NCBI GenBank assembly: GCA_900473795.1 | Contig: UCMT01000005.1 | Span: 62,001-126,000, forward strand | Reading direction: 5' to 3' | Length of the DNA: 64,000 nt | Source: Hyphomicrobiales bacterium | Lineage (GTDB): Bacteria; Pseudomonadota; Alphaproteobacteria; Rhizobiales; Rhizobiaceae | Part shown: positions 1 to 23,056 of the stretch, piece by piece | How the letters are laid out: every line of letters begins with the position of its first letter | How positions within the stretch are numbered: position 1 is the stretch's first letter | The notes under the pieces: generated by a model | Seen by the model: only the letters and a program-made list of their open reading frames with translations | Told to the model about the DNA's origin: nothing | The model's database searches: none | Made by a program: the position numbers and the translations under genes

Positions 1-254
1 TCCGTGCGGATCGCTTCGAAAAGGCGGGCGACCGCATTGGCATCGCCGATATCGGCCCTGACCGCACGCACGGTGCCGCCCGTTTGCAACGCCATCTCGC
101 TGGCGGCTTTCTCGAGCACCTCGGCGCGCCGGCCGGTGATGACGACGGTATAACCCTCGGCGCTCAGGGCTTCGGCGATGCCGCGTCCGACACCGGTGCC
201 GCCGCCTGTCACCAATGCAATCTTGCCGTCGCCGGACTTCGAACCACGCGCCAT
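1..254 (-). CDS. SDR-family oxidoreductase, N-terminal part (cut by window edge)
   Basis: The reverse strand encodes MARGSKSGDGKIALVTGGG followed by TGVGRGIAEAL, the glycine-rich TGxxxGxG nucleotide-binding motif of classical short-chain dehydrogenases. About 84 residues are present; the catalytic YxxxK part lies beyond base 1. The ATG (252-254) comes one base after the TGA of the DenD-like gene, so the two are almost certainly co-transcribed. By context it should act on a sugar acid or polyol linked to the DenD step; that substrate is inference. Confidence 0.8.
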   Translation of the reverse strand, partial: MARGSKSGDGKIALVTGGGTGVGRGIAEALSAEGYTVVITGRRAEVLEKAASEMALQTGGTVRAVRADIGDANAVARLFEAIRT

Positions 255-4096: not shown

Positions 4097-5203
4097 TCAG
4101 ACGGCCGGCTGGCGCACGATCGGTTTCAGCACGATGCCTTTTTCCGAATCCTCCACCGCCTGGTTGATGTCGGCGAAATCGTAGAATGTGACGAGCCTGT
4201 CGAAGGGGAAGCGGCCCTGCCGGTTAAGGTCGATCAGCAGCGGGATCAGTACATCCGGATTGGAATCGCCCTCGACGATGCCGCGGACGCGGCGTCCGCC
4301 GGACAGGATGTGGGTGAGATCCAGCGTCAGCGTGGCGCCGGCGGGCGAGGCCCCGACGATGCCGCAGGTGCCGCGCGGCGCCAGCACCCGCACGCACTGG
4401 TCGATGACGGCCGGGACGCCGGAGGCATCGATCGAATAGTCGACGCCGGCGCCGGTCAGCGCCATGATGGCGGCGACCGCATCCGTCGCCTTGCCGTTGA
4501 CGATGTCCGTCGCGCCGAGCTCCGCCGCAAGCGCAAGGCGCGTCTCGTTGACGTCGACGGCGATGATCCGCGACGCGCCGACGACCCGCGCCGCCATCAC
4601 CGCGGCGAGGCCGACCGAGCCCATCCCGAAGACGGCCAGCACCTTGCCCGGTTCCACCTTGAGCGCGTTCATCACTGCGCCGGCGCCGGTCTGGATGCCG
4701 CAGGCGAGCGGCCCGAGCAGCGCCAGATCGGCGTCTTCGGGCACTTTCACGACATTGCGCTCATGGCAAAGCGCGTGGCTGGCGAAGGAGGATTGGCCGA
4801 AAATATTGCCGTGGACCGGCACGCCTTCGCAGGAGAGCCCGCTCGAACCGTCGGCCCGCGAACCGAAGAAATTGCGCGGGAAGAATTCGTGGCAATAGGT
4901 TCCCTCGTGATCGTTGCAGCTCGGGCAATGACCGCAGGAATTGAAGGTCATGACCACGTGATCGCCAGGCTTCACCTTGGCGACGCCAGGGCCGACACGC
5001 TCGACGATGCCGGCGCCTTCATGGCCGAGCACGACCGGCTGGGGCACCGGCAGATGCTGGTCGCGCATGACGATATCGGTGTGGCAGACCCCGGTCGCCA
5101 CGACCCGGACGAGGATCTCGCCCTCGCGCGGCTCCTCCAGATCGAGCCTTTCCAATGAAAACGGCGTATGCGGCGCACGCGCCACCGCGGCATGGATCTT
5201 CAT
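4097..5203 (-). CDS. Zinc-dependent aryl/allylic alcohol dehydrogenase
   Basis: Medium-chain dehydrogenase of 368 residues. Catalytic zinc ligands are C40 (GVCHTD), H61/E62 (LGHEGAG) and C168 ([11 protein letters not shown]). Structural-zinc cysteines are C90, C93, C96 and C104. The NAD fold is [15 protein letters not shown]. Sequence style fits the benzyl/aryl-alcohol dehydrogenase (XylB-like) branch. In the ferulate operon it plausibly converts coniferyl alcohol to coniferaldehyde, feeding the neighbouring aldehyde dehydrogenase; this is inference. GGAGGAA precedes the ATG. Confidence 0.85.
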
Positions 5204-13874: not shown

Positions 13875-14615
13875 ATGCGCCATGCCTTCCAGGCGCTGCT
13901 GGCCACCGCCGTGGTCTTCATCATCATCGACTGGAACGAGCTCAGCGCCGCCAACCGGGACCTGCCCGGCTTCGACCCGATGCAGCCGGAAGCCGTGCCC
14001 GTGCTGCCGCCTGCGCTGACCGATGGCGAGCCACAGAATGCGCCATCTGACGTCACCGCCGATCCGCAGACGCTCAAGCAGCCGATCCGCTTCGAGCTTC
14101 AGCCGGGCGGCATCCTCTCGGCACAGGGCTCGATCGACCCGGGCGCTGCCGGCCGTTTCGCCGAGGAGATCGCGGCGCGCGGCGAATATGTGAAGACCGT
14201 GCTCATCAACTCCCCCGGCGGCGCCGTCGGCGATGCGCTCGCCATGTCGAAGCTGATCCGCGAGAGGAAGCTCGGCACGAAGGTCGCCAGCGGCGCGCTC
14301 TGCGCCTCCTCCTGCCCGATCATCATGGCCGGCGGCGTCGTCCGCGAAGCCGAAAAAGGCGCCGTCGTCGGCGTCCACCAGATCTTCAACGGCTCGACGG
14401 AAAAGCTCTCTGCCGAACGCGCCATGTCGGACGCGCAAAAAATGACCGCCGACGTCAGCCGCCATCTGGAGGAGATGGGCGTCAAATTCGGTGTCTGGCT
14501 GCACGCGCTCGAGACGCCGCCGGACCGGCTGTACTATCTGACGGCCGAGGAGATGAAGGAATTTGCGCTGACGACCGATGGGGGTACGCCGGTGGCGGGG
14601 GTGAAGAAGAAGTAG
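13875..14615 (+). CDS. COG3904-like periplasmic ClpP-fold protein (N-terminus probably damaged)
   Basis: Protein of 246 residues. After an N-terminal membrane anchor (RHAFQALLATAVVFIIIDW) comes a ClpP/crotonase-like domain: VLINSPGGAVGDALAMSKLI and GALCASSCPIIMAGGVV, with serine and cysteines where Clp-type proteases carry the nucleophile. The natural start may be the ATG at 13782, which overlaps the previous stop as ATGA. That frame reads MKESRQ then TGA (13800) before continuing SPARLEGFGQRLKTYLL into this protein. A C-to-T change would create that TGA. The start at 13875 has no ribosome binding site, so expression is doubtful. Confidence 0.65.
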   Translation: MRHAFQALLATAVVFIIIDWNELSAANRDLPGFDPMQPEAVPVLPPALTDGEPQNAPSDVTADPQTLKQPIRFELQPGGILSAQGSIDPGAAGRFAEEIAARGEYVKTVLINSPGGAVGDALAMSKLIRERKLGTKVASGALCASSCPIIMAGGVVREAEKGAVVGVHQIFNGSTEKLSAERAMSDAQKMTADVSRHLEEMGVKFGVWLHALETPPDRLYYLTAEEMKEFALTTDGGTPVAGVKKK

Positions 14616-14664: not shown

Positions 14665-15966
14665 CTAACGCGCCCTTTGCGCTATCATGATCGCGATCCG
14701 GCGAACAGGCAGCAACAACGACGCCAGTTCCGCCAGTTGGTTGATCCCGGGCAGACGTAAAATCCAACCTGCAAAGGCGGACAGCCCGCCAAGATGCTCC
14801 AGCGCGCGGCCGAGCGCCGCGATACCGGTGGCATTCAAATCGGCGTCACTGCTGACGTAGCGCAAACGATGACGCGCCAGCGCGGGGCGCACCGGTGCTG
14901 TTTCTATCACCAAGCCCTCGGCGGCATGCCGCATCAACCAGGCAAGCAGCCGCGAATCCCGGCCGGAATCGGGGAAATGCAGTGTTGCCGTACGCGCGAT
15001 ATACGGTCTGCCGCGCGGAACCCAATCCCGCACGGCGGCCCGGTACTGGGCCCAGTCTTCCGGCATGGCAAGCGCGATGTGGGTGCGATTGTACCAAGCG
15101 GCGAAGATGCCGTCGAAGATCAGGAATGTCACGGGTATCGCCCATGCGGCGGTGGAACCGGTGAGAACGGCAAGCGAGGCCATTACGAGCGCGGAGGTGA
15201 TCTGCATGGGGTTTGCGATCGACGCGTAGGGGCCACTGGTCACCACCCTTTTGGGCGGATCATAAGGAACAGGCGTGCCACGCCCGACAAGCGCGAATTC
15301 ATGCGCCGCGGCCCAACCGATCAGCAGGCAAGGCAGCCCGATTGTCAACGCAACGATCCAGCGTAAAGCCGATGCCGATTCCAGCACGGCGATGTAGTCC
15401 CTGCCCTCCCACGCCAGCACGCAGGCGGGCAAAACCAGAAGCATGTAGCCGCCCCAGCCGAGACCGTGAAAACAGGTTCTCACAACCGGCCTGCTGTCGG
15501 TCTCCGTCAACCGCGCAAGAACCAGACACGGCACAAGACAGAACAGAATACCCACGGCCTCGCCGACCAACCAGCCTCTGTCAAGTACAACCAGCGGCTT
15601 CAGAAGAGGCATCGAGACTATATCGGCAGCAACGAACGTGACGATCATCAACACGGGCGGGACACGCCGCGACAAGATCACGGCAACCGGGCCCCAGATG
15701 ATGGACCAGCCAATCCACAGATCGACGGGAAGTCCTAAAACAGCAATGGCATCAGGCTGAAAACGCCACCAGTCGAAGCCTTGTGCAGCCATGTTGAGAA
15801 CGAGAAGTGCCGGCAGTTGCCAAAGGCCGCCGAGCAGCGCCGCAGTCGCCTGTCGCGGAGTGAGTGGAAAGAGGATCAGCAGCAACATCGTCCCGCCAAC
15901 TGGACCGAGCAACAACGCCGTCCGCGCGAGCGCAATCAGGTCGACGCCAGGATACCCATCAATCAT
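14665..15966 (-). CDS. Polytopic membrane protein with ICMT/PEMT-like methyltransferase domain and DUF393-like tail
   Basis: Protein of 433 residues. The first 230 residues hold about six hydrophobic spans. KRVVTSGPYASIANPMQI, followed by a span and AAWYNRTHIALAMPEDWAQYRAAVRDWVPRGRPY, matches the isoprenylcysteine/phospholipid methyltransferase pattern (GPY..RHPMY, then Y..Y...V...P). The last 90 residues (GLSAFAGWILRLPGINQLAEL, LLLPVRRIAIMIAQR) resemble the end of DCC/DUF393 proteins but lack their CxxC. Start 15966 overlaps the stop of the upstream gene (ATGATTGA), implying translational coupling. The methyl acceptor is unknown. Confidence 0.65.
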   Translation of the reverse strand: MIDGYPGVDLIALARTALLLGPVGGTMLLLILFPLTPRQATAALLGGLWQLPALLVLNMAAQGFDWWRFQPDAIAVLGLPVDLWIGWSIIWGPVAVILSRRVPPVLMIVTFVAADIVSMPLLKPLVVLDRGWLVGEAVGILFCLVPCLVLARLTETDSRPVVRTCFHGLGWGGYMLLVLPACVLAWEGRDYIAVLESASALRWIVALTIGLPCLLIGWAAAHEFALVGRGTPVPYDPPKRVVTSGPYASIANPMQITSALVMASLAVLTGSTAAWAIPVTFLIFDGIFAAWYNRTHIALAMPEDWAQYRAAVRDWVPRGRPYIARTATLHFPDSGRDSRLLAWLMRHAAEGLVIETAPVRPALARHRLRYVSSDADLNATGIAALGRALEHLGGLSAFAGWILRLPGINQLAELASLLLPVRRIAIMIAQRAR

Positions 15967-16339
15967 TGCCTCGGCCCTCCATCCACCAGCCGATGGCAAC
16001 GGCCAGCGCGAGCATGGCGGGAACGGCAAGGATCATCGGTGCAAGCAAAGTGCCGGCGAACGTGCCGACCGCACAACCCGCAGCGGTCATGCGCTTTGCC
16101 ATGCGAGAAACCAGGACCGGCGGATCGGGAGCGAAAGCAAGCGTTATACCCAGTAGCCCCGGCAAAACAACGAGCAGCGCAAGCCGATGAACCGGCCAGA
16201 CGGTTGCGTGCACGAAAAGGGAGATGCCCATGCAGACGAGGTTCGACCCGGCAATGATCTGAGACCAACGATCGCGAAATTGCGGCCTCAGCGGCGACAA
16301 GCCGTAGGGATAGTCCGGTCTGCCCTGATATTGCGGCAT
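15959..16339 (-). CDS. Small membrane protein coupled to the methyltransferase-like gene
   Basis: Protein of 126 residues starting MPQYQGRPDYPYGL, with about four hydrophobic segments (NLVCMGISLFVHATVW, LALLVVLPGLLGITLAF, CAVGTFAGTLLAPMILAV, MLALAVAIGWWM). The open frame reaches 16618, but the ATG at 16339 has a perfect GGAGG 6 bases before it. Its last codons overlap the start of the methyltransferase-like gene, so the two probably act together in the membrane. No family recognised. Confidence 0.7.
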   Translation of the reverse strand: MPQYQGRPDYPYGLSPLRPQFRDRWSQIIAGSNLVCMGISLFVHATVWPVHRLALLVVLPGLLGITLAFAPDPPVLVSRMAKRMTAAGCAVGTFAGTLLAPMILAVPAMLALAVAIGWWMEGRGND

Positions 16340-16593: not shown

Positions 16594-17160
16594 CTAGTTG
16601 TCTTCCACACCTGTCCATGACGAAGAGTTATATGTCCGAACAGAGCCGTCGTCGGGGTTGACCTCAGGCGCAGGTCCAAATCGGCGATGATAGCCTTTCA
16701 ATATCTCGAAAAGTTCTCTTGGTTTAACGCCAGCCAATGTGCTCGCCGTCATCGTCACGTCGCGCTCCTTTGCTTCAAACATTTTGAAGACAATCAGTTT
16801 TGTCTGCCGAAATCGCCCCGTTTCGTAAAGCTTGATTTTGTGGATTGAAGTCCAAGGCAGAGGTGCCGCTGGAAGAGCGCGACCTGAAACACCATCAGGA
16901 CCAATAATGAGTACCGGCCTGCTCATATCCATTCGTGAGAAAAGATAGCTGCTTGCAGCCAGACATGAAGCGACAACGAGACACCACGCGATCACAGCAC
17001 CGACCGGGTTTGGCCAGTATTCGGTTGGAACCGTCGCTCCGTATGCCTTGAAAAGCAGGGTCGGTAACGCGATGCTGCAAATGACCAGAGCAGCGCGAAA
17101 TTTCTGAGCCGAAAAATGGTACTCGAGCCTCGGGTATTGCTCTCGAGAAAGTGCCGGCAT
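16594..17160 (-). CDS. Two-span membrane protein, STM3941/bacterial PH-like
   Basis: Protein of 188 residues. Two hydrophobic segments (RAALVICSIALPTLLFKAYG and AVIAWCLVVASCLAASSYLF) precede a soluble domain with VLIIGPDGVSGRALPA and LPWTSIHKIKLYETGRFRQ, the layout of STM3941-type bacterial PH-like proteins. The coding region is AT-richer than the surrounding genome. It lies just beyond the aminotransferase fragment at 17214-17440 and is the last gene before the methyltransferase pair. Start 17160 (MPALSREQYP) is chosen for compactness; 17178 is also possible. Confidence 0.6.
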   Translation of the reverse strand: MPALSREQYPRLEYHFSAQKFRAALVICSIALPTLLFKAYGATVPTEYWPNPVGAVIAWCLVVASCLAASSYLFSRMDMSRPVLIIGPDGVSGRALPAAPLPWTSIHKIKLYETGRFRQTKLIVFKMFEAKERDVTMTASTLAGVKPRELFEILKGYHRRFGPAPEVNPDDGSVRTYNSSSWTGVEDN

Positions 17161-17213
17161 TATCTCAAGCTGCTCCAATTATTTTGTTCAATCCTGATGA
17201 GAGCCGGATTGGA

Positions 17214-17440
17214 TCACAAATCCTGCCTGCCCGCCGAATGCGCCCAGTCCATGTAGGCATCCTTCGCCTTGGCGGCGATCGGGCCGGGCTGGAGATCGCG
17301 GTCCTCGAGGCGGGTGACGGGGACGACCTTGGAATAGTTGCCGGTGGCGAAGATTTCGTCGGCGGCCTCGAAATCGGCGAGCGTCAGCGTCGTCTCGACG
17401 ACGTCGACGCCGGTGGCGAAGGCGAAGTAACCGAGGCGCT
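17214..17440 (-). pseudogene. Displaced 3-prime fragment of a branched-chain aminotransferase gene (fragment A)
   Basis: On the minus strand the frame reads VDVVETTLTLADFEAADEIF, then ATGNYSKVVPVTRLEDRD, LQPGPIAAKAKDAYMDWAHS and a stop at 17214. This is the last 60 or so residues of the complete aminotransferase at 20974-21861. By eye the DNA is about 90 percent identical over roughly 190 bases. Upstream, homology stops inside GYFAFATG, 12 bases after the MYG1 stop codon. It has no start codon or promoter of its own. Confidence 0.8.
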
Positions 17441-17452
17441 TGCCTGCGCTCC

Positions 17453-18394
17453 CTACTCGGCCGCCGCCACCTCAGCGGCAACAGCCTCATCTACCGCCAG
17501 TTCGGCCATGGCAAGAGCAGCCTCGCGGGTCCGGGCTGCGGCAACGAAGCGGCCGTTGTGGCAGAAGCTCGCGCCCTTCACCCCGCACACCGCCTCCAGA
17601 TCACCATTGGTCAGCCCAGCCCAGGCGGCCGGCAGATCGGCCCGCACCTCAAAGCCTTCGTCGGCGCGGCGGATGGTGGTCAGGCACCAATCCTTGTCGC
17701 GCGGATGGACGACGAACAGCAGGTGATCGGCGCCCGCCTTGACGATGGCCGGACGGAACGGCATCCCCATCGGCAGCTCCAGGATGCGCCCTTCGCCCGT
17801 ATCGACGATGGCCTGGTGCACCAGCGCCTCGGCCCGCAGCTTGGCAGCACTTTGGGCGATCCTTGCCTCGACGAAACTGCGGGCAATGGCCAATGCCGCG
17901 TGGAAAGCGTGATCGTCGGCTTCAGGATCGGTCTCGTCGAAAACGGGCTTCAAGGTTTCCAGCAGCGCAGGCAAGGTGAGCCCCGCCAGCTTTCCGGCAA
18001 CGGCGGGGCTGAGCGCTCCATTGTCCACCAGATCGACCGGCAGCACGAAGCTCATATCGAAAGAGCCATGGATCGTCTCGACATGCGCTTCCGGAACACC
18101 GGAAGCGGCGAGATAGTCGCGGCCATAGTGCTTCCAGATCAATCCGAACGAACTGTAGGGCTGGCCGTCGTCGCGCAGCGGCGCACCGCGCTGATGATGA
18201 TCGAAGATGCGCGCATCAGGATCATAGGCGCCGCCGACATCGTAGATGATGCGGTCTGCACCGGGTGCGAGCCATTCCGGCGCCCGGCTGCGGGTGATGC
18301 GCGCCTGCGGGAAAAGCCGGGTGAGGATGACGCTGGACAACAGCTCGTCGGCATGGAAGCCACCGGAATGGGTGACGAGGAATTCTGGGATCAT
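17453..18394 (-). CDS. MYG1 family protein (UPF0160, DHH-like hydrolase)
   Basis: Protein of 313 residues. LVTHSGGFHADELLSSVIL, YDVGGAYDPDARIFDHHQRG and YSSFGLIWKHYGRDYL are the conserved histidine/aspartate blocks of the MYG1 family, which has a DHH-phosphoesterase-like metal site. Eukaryotic MYG1 is a 3-prime to 5-prime RNA exonuclease; the bacterial role is unproven. Start at MIPEFLVTHSGG (18394) fits the family N-terminus although the ribosome site is weak; a GTG at 18439 is an alternative. It sits between the two aminotransferase fragments in the same orientation. Confidence 0.85.
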   Translation of the reverse strand: MIPEFLVTHSGGFHADELLSSVILTRLFPQARITRSRAPEWLAPGADRIIYDVGGAYDPDARIFDHHQRGAPLRDDGQPYSSFGLIWKHYGRDYLAASGVPEAHVETIHGSFDMSFVLPVDLVDNGALSPAVAGKLAGLTLPALLETLKPVFDETDPEADDHAFHAALAIARSFVEARIAQSAAKLRAEALVHQAIVDTGEGRILELPMGMPFRPAIVKAGADHLLFVVHPRDKDWCLTTIRRADEGFEVRADLPAAWAGLTNGDLEAVCGVKGASFCHNGRFVAAARTREAALAMAELAVDEAVAAEVAAAE

Positions 18395-18505
18395 GCCGGG
18401 ATGCGCCTTGTTGCTTGCGGAGGTTCGCTGGAGATGCACCAGATAGCCATTGCGGGAGGCGAGCTCAACCCGTCTTTTGCGTGGTCGGTGTGCTTAATGG
18501 CTCGC

Positions 18506-19000
18506 CTATTTGCGAATGGAGCGGCAATCTGCATCGGTTATGGCCAGTGTTGTTCCACCATCAGGCCAAGAGACGACGTACTGTACCTGTTTTATGCGTC
18601 GAGATGCCAACCAAGCGCCATAGACCTTACATTGCTCAATCGTCATGTCTTTGTTGATTTCGAAACCGTCCAATGGCTCGGGTGAGAAGGCTTGAAATGC
18701 AAGAAATCGATGAGCAAACGATACGGAGTTAAGTGAGATACCGTCAAAGTCTTGAGGAAATTTCTCGTTCATTTTGGCGATTTCGGCATCGGATATCGCC
18801 TTCGGCGGCAGTCGCATGATGTTGCCAAGTAGACACGTGCCTAGGAGGATGAGAAAGACCAACAATCCCTCTCTCTTGAACCACCACTGGATCACACCAC
18901 CGACTGCGGCACTAAAGATGACTTGCGCCATCAACCAGGGAATCCAATCGCTTGTATTCCAGTGGAGTTCGCCCCAAATTTCGTCAAACATTTCAATCAT
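18506..19000 (-). CDS. Hypothetical membrane-anchored protein, AT-rich islet gene
   Basis: Protein of 164 residues starting MIEMFDEIWGELHW. Two hydrophobic stretches (WLMAQVIFSAAVGGVIQWW and GLLVFLILLGTCLLGNIM) are followed by a soluble C-terminal part ending AITDADCRSIRK. Base composition is visibly AT-richer than neighbouring core genes, suggesting recent arrival. No family recognised. It belongs to the run of minus-strand genes between aminotransferase fragments A and B. Confidence 0.6.
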   Translation of the reverse strand: MIEMFDEIWGELHWNTSDWIPWLMAQVIFSAAVGGVIQWWFKREGLLVFLILLGTCLLGNIMRLPPKAISDAEIAKMNEKFPQDFDGISLNSVSFAHRFLAFQAFSPEPLDGFEINKDMTIEQCKVYGAWLASRRIKQVQYVVSWPDGGTTLAITDADCRSIRK

Positions 19001-19364
19001 TATTCTCAACCAGGAATGGATGCTCGGAATCCTCTGGTGCCTATAGAAGCGCGATGGCCTTGGATCAAGATTGAATCTATCCGCCACGCCCGAAGAAAAT
19101 GGGCCATCAAAGTGCACTTGGGCCGATGGACGACGAAGGTCTTGGCTGGATTGCACCCGTTGCAGGCATTGCAACCCTTAGCAAACCGGATATCGTGGAC
19201 TTTCTCGGACGCTTTGAAAGATCAGCATGATTTACATTGGATCGCGAGATGCAAGAAACGACCAGGCTATACGTTGCGTTGTTGCCAAGCGCGGGTTCGC
19301 CGGGCCATGTCGTGACCTTGGCTGAGTCCAAGTGCGCCATGAGCGGCCATCGGCACGGGCACGC
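19001..19364. other. Intergenic stretch without a convincing gene
   Basis: No coding region can be supported with confidence. A plus-strand frame at 19099-19230 encodes 43 residues that include DDEGLGWIAPVAGIATLSKP and look protein-like, perhaps the tail of a lost gene. Minus-strand frames of similar length have unconvincing composition. Confidence 0.4.
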
Positions 19365-19739
19365 CTATAGGACTGCAAACTCGACTTTTCGGGCGCCGAT
19401 ATAGAAGCCACCGGCACGGACTTCTTGGATCGTACGCTCTGAATCACCCAAGCAGTCGAAATCAACGTAAGTCAATCCGGCCTCCGTAATGACCGCGATT
19501 CCAAAAGAAACCAACCCCAATGTCGTATTAAGGGGCTGCACGAGCTTAAACTCTTTTACGTCCTGAAAATTCAGGACGCATTGTTTCCGAGTCATTCGAG
19601 GATCGAAATCGCCCTGACAGTTCAAAACGACTTGCAGAAGAAGATCAGCGCCGGAACCGTAGTCGATAGAAATGGCTTCGACAACGGAGTCGTTGAAGTT
19701 GTCGAACCGATGCAAAATTTCCGGAATTGAGTTTGGCAT
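19365..19739 (-). CDS. Small hypothetical protein, possibly immunity-like
   Basis: Protein of 124 residues starting MPNSIPEILHRFDNFNDSVV. The pattern of a short acidic N-terminus followed by alternating beta strands (LLLQVVLNCQGDFDP, CVLNFQDVKEFKLVQPL, LTYVDFDCLGDSERTI) is reminiscent of small beta-rich immunity proteins such as Imm50, but I cannot claim membership. It is AT-rich, has no neighbouring toxin gene, and lies next to aminotransferase fragment B. Confidence 0.55.
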   Translation of the reverse strand: MPNSIPEILHRFDNFNDSVVEAISIDYGSGADLLLQVVLNCQGDFDPRMTRKQCVLNFQDVKEFKLVQPLNTTLGLVSFGIAVITEAGLTYVDFDCLGDSERTIQEVRAGGFYIGARKVEFAVL

Positions 19740-19880
19740 CCGCATACGACCTGATCAATTAGAGGCTTGTTAAAGGGGCAAAACACCACAGTCTCGTAGA
19801 GTCCGCAATGGGCCCAGAGGCAGCCCCCTGTCCTGCCACCAAGAAAGAGCCATCCGCTTTCCGGGCAGATGGCGGACCGG

Positions 19881-19981
19881 CAGCGTCCTCACATATCCGA
19901 CGCCGCCGAGTCCGCCCAATCCATGTACAGGTCCTTCGCCTTGGCGGCGATCGGGCCGGGTTGGAGGTCGCGGTTTTCGAG
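19881..19981 (-). pseudogene. Displaced 3-prime fragment of a branched-chain aminotransferase gene (fragment B)
   Basis: The minus strand reads LENRDLQPGPIAAKAKDLY then MDWADSAASDM and stop (TCA at 19889-19891), matching the last 30 residues of the aminotransferase at 20974-21861. Identity is about 88 percent by eye. The match continues about 8 bases past the stop codon (GCAGCGTCC, plus-strand sense) and then ends. At the other side it breaks at TTTTCGAG, 14 bases from the stop of the Imm33-like gene. Confidence 0.8.
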
Positions 19982-19994
19982 CTTGTTGCCGGCC

Positions 19995-20348
19995 TCACGC
20001 AATGTCCAGAAGCGACCTGTCGAACCAGACGTCTTCGTAGGAGCCATCCGTCAAAAACCGCCAGCCCGGAGGCAGCGACAAGTATTTTGCGATCAGCGGA
20101 TTCCAGGTGGCGACGTGGGAATAGTGCAGCGCCTTGAAAGCATCGTCATCGGGAAAAGTTTCTCCGCCCCATATGTACCAGCCATTCGTAGGAAGTTCCG
20201 GTGGATGCCGCAGCCCGTTGATCGGAAGGATCGATGACTTCACGTTTAGCGAAATACCCAAAACGCTATCGTCAGACGGCGGCGAAAACTCTGCTCCATA
20301 TTTGTTGCAGACTTGCTTTTGCTCGATACTGAATATGCCGGCGCTCAT
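19995..20348 (-). CDS. Imm33-domain-like protein
   Basis: Protein of 117 residues. The C-terminal half NGWYIWGGETFPDD, YLSLPPGWRFLTDGSYEDVW, FDRSLL has the look of proteins annotated with the Imm33 (DUF2185-related) domain, predicted immunity partners of polymorphic toxins. No toxin gene is adjacent. It starts 9 bases after the stop of the broken NADAR gene, so they form one transcript. It ends 14 bases before aminotransferase fragment B. The family call is from memory of the motif pattern and is moderate. Confidence 0.6.
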   Translation of the reverse strand: MSAGIFSIEQKQVCNKYGAEFSPPSDDSVLGISLNVKSSILPINGLRHPPELPTNGWYIWGGETFPDDDAFKALHYSHVATWNPLIAKYLSLPPGWRFLTDGSYEDVWFDRSLLDIA

Positions 20349-20357
20349 CGCGTGATC

Positions 20358-20904
20358 TTATTGTTTTTCGCCGCGAAGTCTGTCCCGCGTCTCCATCAAT
20401 GCGAACCCGAGCAGGTTTTCTCCGCGCCAGAGAAGCGGATTGCTCGCGTTGTCATCGTCAGCGGCAAGACCGATCCCCCATACCGGATCGACTGGACTTG
20501 CCTCGACCAGGATCAGGTCGCCCGTCGACAGCAGGAACTCGCCAAGCGCCAAATTCTGTTTGAACTTGTGCAGGTTGCCTTCCGTCACGATGCGAAGCTT
20601 TTCTTCGTCCCAGAGCGCAGGGTCGAAGCCGCGCACCTCACGGCCGAGTTGCTTGACCTGTTTGGGGCTTTCCGCGTCCCGCCGTTTGCTCGTCACCGAA
20701 CAGTCGCGCCTTTCCCGCCATCATCCAGTGTTCCGCGGTCGGATAACGAAGGCCATCCACCTCAAAGGGAGCTGGCCACCATTGGCTGAAACAGGAGACA
20801 CCGAGCTTGCCATCCCTGGAAGGCTGATGCCCCCAAAAGAAAAGCACCTTCAGCTCCCCTTTCGCGCGGAATTCATTCTCGATTTTCAAACGGTTATGAT
20901 CCAT
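20358..20904 (-). pseudogene. NADAR (YbiA/DUF1768) family protein, frameshifted
   Basis: The N-terminal part in one frame reads LKVLFFWGHQPSRDGKLG, FSQWWPAPFEVDGLRYPTAE and HWMMAGKARLFGDEQTA, the NADAR core. The continuation DAESPKQVKQLGREVRGFD, VDPVWGIGLAADD and LLWRGENLLGFALMETRDRL lies in another frame from about 20690 to 20358. A small indel near 20675-20690 explains the break. NADAR proteins are N-glycosidases linked to ADP-ribose and riboflavin-intermediate metabolism and, in some systems, to reversal of nucleic-acid ADP-ribosylation. This copy is probably inactive unless the indel is a sequencing error. It lies 69 bases after the intact aminotransferase. Confidence 0.75.
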
Positions 20905-20973
20905 TCCTCGATATGGAACGGGCCTGTCGCGTTTGTCGATTCAGCTCCACGCTCGAGGTGAAGTGCAGCGTCC

Positions 20974-21861
20974 TCACATGTCCGAAGCCGCCGAATGCGC
21001 CCAGTCCATGTACAAATCCTTCGCCTTGGCGGCGATGGGGCCGGCTTGCAGGTCGCGGTCTTCGAGGCGGGTGACGGGGACGACCTTGGAATAGTTGCCG
21101 GTGGTGAAGATTTCGTCGGCGCCCTCGAAATCGGACAGTGTCAGGGTCGTTTCGACCACGTCGAAGCCGGCGTCGCGCAGCAGTGTCATGACGCGGAAGC
21201 GGGTGATGCCGGCGAGGAAGGTCTTGTTGGCGGCCGGCGTGAAGACAACGCCGTCCTTGACCATGAAGACGTTGGACGAGCCGGTTTCGGCGATATTGCC
21301 AAGCATGTCGCGCACCAGCGCATTGTCGAAGCCGCGCGTGCGGGCCTCGGCCAGGATGCGACCGTTGTTGGGATAGAGGCAGCCGGCCTTGGCATCGGTT
21401 GGCATGCATTCGATCGTCGGCCGGCGGAAGGGTGAAACGGTGACCGACATGCCGCCGTTGCCGCCGCCCATCGGCGCCTCGAACAGGCAGAGCGCGAAAC
21501 GGGTCGATTCCGGATCGACCGTGACGACGCTGCTTGCCGAGCCATGCTCGCCCCAGTACATCGGCTTGATATAGACGGCGGTCTTGCCGTCGAATTTCTT
21601 GCAGCCCTCCCAGGCGAGACTTTCGATGTCCTCCGCCGTCACCGTGGGCTTGAGGCCGAGCGCCAGCGCCGAGCGGTTGACGCGCTGGCAATGCAGGTCG
21701 AGATCCGGTGCGATGCCGTCGAACCAGCGGGCGCCATCGAACACCGTCGAGCCGAGCCACATGGCATGCGAGGTCGGGCCGATCAGCGGCGGGTTGCCGG
21801 AAAGCCACTCGCCGTCGACATAGGTCCAGGTGGTGCTGCGCGGGGATGTGTCGACGGCCAT
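20974..21861 (-). CDS. Branched-chain-amino-acid aminotransferase (class IV, PLP)
   Basis: Complete protein of 295 residues. Class IV motifs include DAKAGCLYPNNGRILAEARTRG (likely PLP lysine in DAKAG), GNIAETGSSNVFMVKDG and FLAGITRFRVMTLLRDAG. It transfers amino groups between branched-chain amino acids and 2-oxoglutarate, or acts on a related substrate; ilvE identity cannot be fixed. Start 21861 (MAVDTSPR) has AGGAGA 7 bases upstream. Its 3-prime end exists in two further diverged copies (19881-19981 and 17214-17440). Confidence 0.85.
   Translation of the reverse strand: MAVDTSPRSTTWTYVDGEWLSGNPPLIGPTSHAMWLGSTVFDGARWFDGIAPDLDLHCQRVNRSALALGLKPTVTAEDIESLAWEGCKKFDGKTAVYIKPMYWGEHGSASSVVTVDPESTRFALCLFEAPMGGGNGGMSVTVSPFRRPTIECMPTDAKAGCLYPNNGRILAEARTRGFDNALVRDMLGNIAETGSSNVFMVKDGVVFTPAANKTFLAGITRFRVMTLLRDAGFDVVETTLTLSDFEGADEIFTTGNYSKVVPVTRLEDRDLQAGPIAAKAKDLYMDWAHSAASDM

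Positions 21862-22015: not shown

Positions 22016-23056
<1,041 letters not shown>

What the first reader, a model, noticed from the sequence alone, without database searches (positions are those of the whole stretch)
17214..21861. Scattered diverged copies of the aminotransferase 3-prime end, separated by acquired small genes
Seen: the complete branched-chain aminotransferase (20974-21861, minus) is followed downstream by NADAR + Imm33-like genes, then a 101-bp copy of its own 3-prime end (19881-19981), then three or more AT-rich genes and MYG1, then a second 3-prime copy (17214-17440). All are in the same orientation and each copy keeps the original stop codon. The copies are 88-90 percent identical to the gene, and fragment B extends about 8 bases past the stop. 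Known: mobile elements that integrate at gene ends leave a displaced 3-prime end on the far side. Inference: the locus has received cassettes at least twice, each bringing or displacing an aminotransferase end. No integrase is visible, so homologous exchange of tails is an alternative.
Basis: partly seen in the sequence, partly recalled or inferred. Interest (0 to 1): 0.75.

Follow-up and report, generated by a model that had tools for sequence, protein, structure and literature searches.

The report
Gene-tail scars of repeated gene insertion
Behind a housekeeping aminotransferase gene of a soil bacterium, new genes appear to have slotted in more than once together with a fresh copy of the gene's own end, leaving old ends behind as fragments; this resembles how toxin genes in other bacteria swap their tails, but here at a gene that is not a toxin.

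Summary
The aminotransferase (AT, 20974-21861, minus) has two truncated same-strand copies of its 3' end: fragment A (19880-19981, 89%) and fragment B (17214 to about 17419, 90%), each ending in a stop codon. The window is from the Pararhizobium group. AT is a mosaic: R. giardinii/R. herbae-type alleles up to nt 696, mostly another lineage's from nt 741 (Fisher p 2.5e-7; by codon 6e-5), and fragment B starts at nt 697. Fragment A is followed by the downstream flank that lies directly behind AT in sister strains. Fragment B's tail type plus orf194 recurs behind an intact AT in strain R129_A, whose older tail is displaced further down. No tyrosine integrase hit lies on the contig and fragment starts differ between events. 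Best explanation: incoming DNA anchored by homology in AT and joined illegitimately (or as a circle) on the other side; the gene gains a donor tail plus cargo, the resident tail stays as a scar. It works like rhs/T6SS C-terminal displacement, but at a metabolic gene.

The parts
20974..21861 (-). intact class IV (branched-chain-type) aminotransferase, the anchor gene; mosaic
   Evidence: PF01063 E 5.6e-42; allele switch
21125..21169 (-). allele switch zone in AT (gene nt 696-740, counted from 21864)
   Evidence: informative sites; best single breakpoint 696-740
20358..20904 (-). NADAR gene in two frames (20638-20904 and 20358-20696); cargo
   Evidence: PF08719 positions 1-59 and 62-163; 1 of 26 genus genomes
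19995..20348 (-). Imm33-like gene; cargo
   Evidence: PF24719 E 2e-37; 2 of 26 genus genomes, the other being R. herbae DSM 26427, also behind AT
19880..19981 (-). fragment A: AT 3' end (gene nt about 788 to stop plus about 9 nt), ASDM type
   Evidence: 89% over 102 bp
19849..19873 (-). terminator-like hairpin of AT's native downstream flank, now behind fragment A
   Evidence: pattern scan (4 sites found, shuffles mean 4.8); flank 91% to that of L116; not the minimum-energy fold of the 77-nt stretch
19365..19745 (-). orf126, unknown; HU44 keeps a 74-bp remnant of its end
18506..19174 (-). orf222, unknown
   Evidence: no Pfam family
17453..18439 (-). MYG1-family gene, far end of the variable interval
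   Evidence: PF03690 E 9.7e-70; downstream of AT in 18 of 25 genus loci
17214..17419 (-). fragment B: AT 3' end from gene nt about 697, GRQDL type
   Evidence: 90% over 183 bp; contiguous with orf194 as in L048
16594..17178 (-). orf194, unknown; behind a GRQDL tail here and in L048
17405..17430 (-). stretch between MYG1 and fragment B; a single stretch of 25-26 bp in L116, L036, L037 and L048 aligns both here and at 14584-14609; joins AT at a CCGGC(G/T)TCG microhomology
14665..16029 (-). gene with a weak PEMT match (below Pfam's cut-off), between MYG1 and the convergent gene; same in L133

Best explanation
The fragments are scars of repeated insertion of small cargo genes by homology-anchored recombination. 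DNA from a related strain that carries an AT 3' end followed by cargo pairs with the resident AT gene. One side joins by homologous recombination inside AT, the other by illegitimate joining (or the donor is a circle and integrates by one crossover). The recipient keeps a full-length AT with a donor tail and gains cargo behind it, and the resident tail with its native flank is left downstream. Shown: truncated tails, allele switch in AT near the point where fragment B starts, native flank behind fragment A, sister loci with one AT end and that flank, a tail type linked to one cargo gene, differing boundaries. Inferred: order of events, form of the donor (linear or circular), transcription of cargo from the AT promoter.
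For: Mosaic AT: at sites where giardinii and HU44 agree against L116, nt 1-696 has 49 giardinii-type and 5 L116-type, nt 741-895 has 3 and 12, one neither. Fragment B begins at nt about 697. Fragment A plus flank aligns to L116 -92..88 at 91%. In 7 of 25 loci the native flank starts directly behind AT: L116, L036, L038, L042, L043, L044, L129 (L116, L036, L042 and L043 also served as queries; L037, L039 and L045 match in part). L048: AT(GRQDL)-orf194-displaced ASDM tail with the first 25 flank bases-MYG1. HU44: AT-racemase-oxidase-decayed AT copy with native flank. L046: directly after Imm33 an AT-tail remnant, local score 20, reached by 0 of 500 block shuffles and 0 of 481 random 65-mers, so the Imm33/tail junction is shared with the window. 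AT-MYG1 gap 193-5921 bp (n=18), against ADH-AT 147-188 bp in 14 of 18 and MYG1 to the next gene 23-92 bp in 11 of 14. Another gene of the contig has the same anatomy.
Against: Three sites after nt 696 are giardinii-type (763, 816, 890) and five before it L116-type; fragment B itself is mixed, so more than one exchange is needed. A single event for fragment B does not explain why no second MYG1 follows orf194; a deletion must be assumed. The MYG1/fragment B joint has only about 9 nt of imperfect microhomology. No plasmid or phage row listed carries AT tail plus cargo, but 43 of 63 rows were not listed. No donor strain with AT tail plus NADAR was found. orf126 also lies about 6 kb behind AT in G008 and on another contig in G018, so cargo is not strictly tied to the AT end.
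Confidence: 0.75

Rival explanations
1. A site-specific integrase element inserts at the AT 3' end and restores the gene end, leaving the displaced end on the far side; the integrase has been lost.
For: Gene 3' end used, full-length gene kept, displaced tail with native flank.
Against: 0 of 15 tyrosine-integrase hits on the contig; serine recombinases were not searched. Fragment starts and cargo ends differ between events. Tails diverge over 100-200 bp instead of sharing a short identical core.
Confidence: 0.07
2. [quoted passage not shown]
For: Direct repeats flank the inserts; the HU44 copies are 98% alike over 307 bp and of the same type; relatives' 25-26-bp stretch matches both ends of the block between MYG1 and the convergent gene.
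Against: In L048 and in the window the tails are of different types (GRQDL against ASDM) and match different lineages, so at least one tail was imported.
Confidence: 0.12
3. Old tandem duplication of AT followed by decay and gene gain between the copies.
For: The HU44 copy still has pieces of the 5' half with an internal deletion.
Against: Single AT with native flank in seven sister loci; scars found in 4 of 26 genus genomes, with different cargo and starts (remnants under about 50 bp were sought only in L046); mosaic gene.
Confidence: 0.04

Closest known systems
C-terminal displacement in rhs genes (Jackson et al. 2009, PMC2935791; abstract and outline seen)
   Same: Conserved core, laterally acquired 3' end, older tips left as an array; homologous recombination with circular intermediates proposed.
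   Different: There the tips are variable C-termini; here the tail of a metabolic enzyme stays much the same and unrelated cargo is what changes.
Sequential displacement in T6SS immunity arrays of Vibrio cholerae (Kirchberger et al. 2017, PMC5361080; passages seen)
   Same: Homologous anchor upstream, illegitimate joint downstream, an old 3' end shifted back, immunity genes accumulate; homology-facilitated illegitimate recombination proposed.
   Different: The anchor here is not an effector; the cargo (NADAR, Imm33-like, racemase, oxidase, orf194) has no evident partnership with it.
Insertion with long target duplication (Nobusato et al. 2000; not read, seen as described in passages of PMC1643837)
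   Same: Inserted genes with long direct repeats of the target.
   Different: In the window and L048 the repeats are different alleles; the cargo is not mainly restriction-modification.
Minimal mobile element of Neisseria (search listing only; its definition is recalled)
   Same: Alternative cargo between the same conserved genes.
   Different: Ends of the flanking gene are duplicated here; competence of the host is unknown.

Membership tests
Integrase island at a gene 3' end | Recombinase gene in or next to the element | tested here: not met
   0 of 15 PF00589 hits on contig C43; none among the ten locus proteins scanned with Pfam; serine recombinases not searched genome-wide
Integrase island at a gene 3' end | Fixed short identical core at both ends | tested here: not met
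   Fragment starts at AT nt about 697, 788, 842, 131/588
Integrase island at a gene 3' end | Empty site in relatives | tested here: met
   native flank directly behind AT in 7 of 25 loci; other cargo often follows further on
C-terminal displacement (rhs / T6SS type) | Resident 5' part joined to donor 3' part | tested here: met
C-terminal displacement (rhs / T6SS type) | Old 3' ends kept downstream | tested here: met
C-terminal displacement (rhs / T6SS type) | The exchanged tail encodes a variable toxin or effector domain | tested here: not met
   the tail is the aminotransferase C-terminus
Homology-facilitated illegitimate recombination | Homologous joint on one side, little or no homology on the other | tested here: inconclusive
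   AT side homologous; MYG1/fragment B joint about 9 nt of imperfect microhomology; Imm33/fragment A joint not resolved
Insertion with long target duplication | Both repeats derive from the same target allele | tested here: not met
   window and L048 tails of different types; HU44 is compatible
Minimal mobile element | Different cargo between the same conserved genes | tested here: met
   AT-MYG1 gap 193-5921 bp in 18 of 25 loci, several cargos
Minimal mobile element | Exchange by natural transformation | not testable with these tools
   needs an experiment

The most novel reading that the evidence does not exclude
Rhizobia carry integrase-free 'gene-tail cassettes': small cargo genes that travel together with the 3' end of a core gene as their own homology anchor, enter behind that gene's stop codon without harming it, in some cases ahead of its terminator so that they gain its promoter; displaced tails across the genome are the fossil record of this traffic. 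Another gene of the same contig, and ends of further genes in sister species, show similar anatomy.
Probability: 0.27. Interest if true: 0.65.

Novelty: new variant of a known kind. Interest (0 to 1): 0.42.

Why it matters
How small genes enter chromosomes without visible mobile-element machinery is often unreadable (general knowledge, no call). Here the scars preserve donor tail, resident tail, flank and joints, so mode and order of insertion can be approached. If general, truncated gene ends behind intact genes would be a searchable signature of homology-anchored gene capture, extending rhs/T6SS tail displacement to housekeeping genes and explaining insertion hotspots without integrases.

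Tried and rejected
Tyrosine integrase at the locus: none. Plasmid or phage carrier of AT tail plus cargo: all 11 plasmid records match either the AT part or the NADAR part; one phage record matches the AT part; the 20 listed of 63 plasmid records match the MYG1 part, 43 were not listed. Distant orf194 homologues (30-40%) elsewhere were not followed. Of 13 other repeat pairs viewed, three are gene 3' ends and most of the rest look by eye like dispersed intergenic repeats. A protein-level census gave 4 C-terminal downstream, 2 C-terminal upstream, 0 N-terminal and 4 internal fragments, one of the four C-terminal downstream ones being a 390-residue paralogous stretch; it missed the VOC-like, ADH and L099 cases, so its sensitivity is poor. 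Contiguity of tail and native flank was sought for the DapA-like and ADH copies and not found. Folding: none of six stretches had a significant z-score (best -1.93) and fragment A's flank does not show the hairpin in its minimum-energy fold; the terminator scan found 4 sites where shuffles gave 4.8. PADLOC: only the NADAR halves and the HU44 Mrr/M78 protein matched models among ten proteins. Paper searches: (one found nothing); papers opened. None of these searches was meant to prove absence in print.
Full report
Setting. The window lies in G000:C43:62001-126000 of a 6.39-Mb genome. Its closest named relatives at AT are Rhizobium giardinii H152 (L036, 98% aa) and R. herbae HU44 (L037, 97%); several other near ones are named Pararhizobium. 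Of 26 genus genomes (own included) 25 match the AT 3' end, all but G022.

Observation. AT has two truncated copies of its 3' end, same strand, stop codon kept: A (102 bp, 89%) and B (183 bp aligned, 90%). Tail copies also occur in HU44 (307 bp at 98%, plus 93 bp of the 5' half, with the part between missing) and in Rhizobiales bacterium R129_A (L048, 60 bp at 93%). R. herbae DSM 26427 (L046) keeps a short AT-tail remnant right behind its Imm33 gene, as the window does (score 20; 0 of 500 block shuffles, 0 of 481 random stretches). So scars were found in 4 of 26 genus genomes; remnants under about 50 bp were looked for only in L046.

The gene is a mosaic. At sites where giardinii and HU44 agree against L116 (G018), the window AT has the giardinii allele at 49 and the L116 allele at 5 sites in nt 1-696, and 3 against 12 (one neither) after it; Fisher p 2.5e-7, 6e-5 when collapsed by codon; best single breakpoint nt 696-740. 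Identity in 100-nt bins: to HU44 97 95 90 98 96 96 97 and then 93 and 87%; to L116 94 96 91 91 83 88 89 and then 95 and 95%. Fragment B starts at nt about 697 and has the giardinii-type GRQDL end. The simplest reading: the resident gene was parted there, its tail pushed downstream as B, and a donor tail taken. Against it, sites 763, 816 and 890 are giardinii-type, four of the five early exceptions sit together at 237-249, and B is mixed at 741-874, so further exchanges must be allowed.

Flanks. In seven of 25 loci AT is followed at once by a conserved flank with a GCCATCCGC-GCGGATGGC hairpin. In the window that flank stands behind fragment A (91% to L116; terminator-like 19873-19849), while AT keeps only about ten flank bases before it diverges towards NADAR. 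In L048 the first 25 flank bases stand behind the displaced tail, after orf194, and the hairpin is not complete there. In HU44 part of the flank lies behind both copies and the racemase is on the other strand. So cargo ahead of an intact native terminator is seen in the window only; read-through transcription is inferred.

Cargo. The AT-MYG1 gap is 193-5921 bp in the 18 of 25 loci with MYG1, while ADH-AT is 147-188 bp in 14 of 18 and MYG1 to the next gene 23-92 bp in 11 of 14. Contents include an S11 peptidase, a MerR protein, an RTX protein, a methyltransferase-like gene, DUF6966 plus Imm33-like, racemase plus DAO oxidase plus an Mrr/M78 protein, and orf194. A close orf194 (79%) exists besides the window only in R129_A, right behind a GRQDL tail in both; seven further genomes have distant (34-40%) homologues. 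Imm33-like occurs in 2 of 26, both behind AT, NADAR in 1 of 26, orf126 in 3 of 26, in G008 about 6 kb behind AT and in G018 on another contig. HU44 keeps a 74-bp remnant of the end of orf126.

Downstream part. Fragment B joins the region behind MYG1 at a CCGGC(G/T)TCG microhomology. A single stretch of 25-26 bp in L116, L036, L037 and L048 aligns both there (17405-17430) and at 14584-14609; between them lie fragment B, orf194 and a gene with a sub-threshold PEMT match, which L133 has at the same place. I could not order these steps with confidence.

Beyond AT. In 2.93 Mb (520 kb of this contig, 680 kb of G018, 85 AT-centred loci, partly redundant) 38 direct-repeat pairs passed the filter. Seven rows have a copy covering an ORF's 3' end: AT fragment A, HU44 AT, a gene at C43:16765-17724 (VOC-like by eye, not scanned), ADH in G018, a DapA-like gene in L046 (by eye), a gene in L099, and a 43-bp match at C43:34883 whose copy lies upstream. 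Fragment B was labelled internal because its alignment ends short of the stop. Two rows have a 5' end (L050, L083); both look by eye like intergenic repeats. Without the 43-bp row, six against none gives p 0.03 and six against two 0.29, so a 3' bias is only suggestive. The gene at 16765-17724 has a decayed tail 4.4 kb downstream behind four likely genes, and G020 has tail and following sequence contiguous over 575 bp at 81%. Other relatives carry roughly 3-6 kb there without a retained tail in the listed matches, so G020 is either an empty site or one that lost its insert. No contiguity was found for the ADH and DapA-like copies.

Mechanism and rivals. Homology inside AT on one side with a non-homologous joint on the other, or a circle with one crossover, accounts for donor tail, displaced resident tail, native flank and differing starts. 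Integrase insertion is disfavoured by the differing starts and by 0 of 15 tyrosine-integrase hits on the contig. Target duplication fits HU44 but not L048 or the window, where tail types differ. Tandem duplication alone does not fit sister loci with a single AT end.

Known relatives. rhs C-terminal displacement with proposed circular intermediates (PMC2935791, abstract) and T6SS immunity arrays with proposed homology-facilitated illegitimate recombination (PMC5361080, passages) work in the same way. Merodiploid formation by transformation (PMC3784515, passages) is another route to partial duplications. Long target duplication I know from passages of PMC1643837. I say that this works like C-terminal displacement but do not file it as a member, because the exchanged tail is not a toxin or effector end.

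Noticed in passing
window 20358-20904 (-): NADAR gene split over two overlapping frames that cover profile positions 1-59 and 62-163, so it looks frameshifted.
   Followed up: no
window 14584-14609 and 17405-17430: A stretch of 25-26 bp of relatives aligns to both ends of a block with fragment B, orf194 and a weak-PEMT gene between MYG1 and the convergent gene; L133 has the latter gene at the same place.
   Followed up: partly
L153:16765-17724 and L154:2148-2459 (C43:16765-17724, 22148-22459): Another gene of the same contig with a decayed copy of its 3' part 4.4 kb downstream; G020 has tail and flank contiguous.
   Followed up: partly
L116:3163-3228 and 4603-4669: Alcohol dehydrogenase 3' end duplicated about 1.4 kb downstream, stop codon kept.
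   Followed up: partly
L046:18554-18680 and 19570-19696: 3' end of a DapA-like gene (named by eye) duplicated about 0.9 kb downstream, stop codon kept.
   Followed up: partly
L099:3580-3669 and 4190-4278: 3' end of a gene plus about 30 bp of flank duplicated about 0.5 kb downstream.
   Followed up: no
L037:15096-15169: 74-bp remnant of the 3' end of orf126 between an alpha/beta hydrolase gene and an Mrr/M78-domain gene.
   Followed up: partly
G022: The one genus genome of 26 without a match to the AT 3' end.
   Followed up: no
plasmids collection: MYG1-region homologues at about 76-83% lie on large rhizobial replicons in most of the 20 listed rows (one is a 97-kb Aminobacter plasmid), so MYG1 may be a late neighbour of AT.
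   Followed up: no
phages collection, MW462191: A freshwater phage record carries an annotated branched-chain aminotransferase; its DNA matches 227 bases of the query (70%) within the AT or tail part.
   Followed up: no
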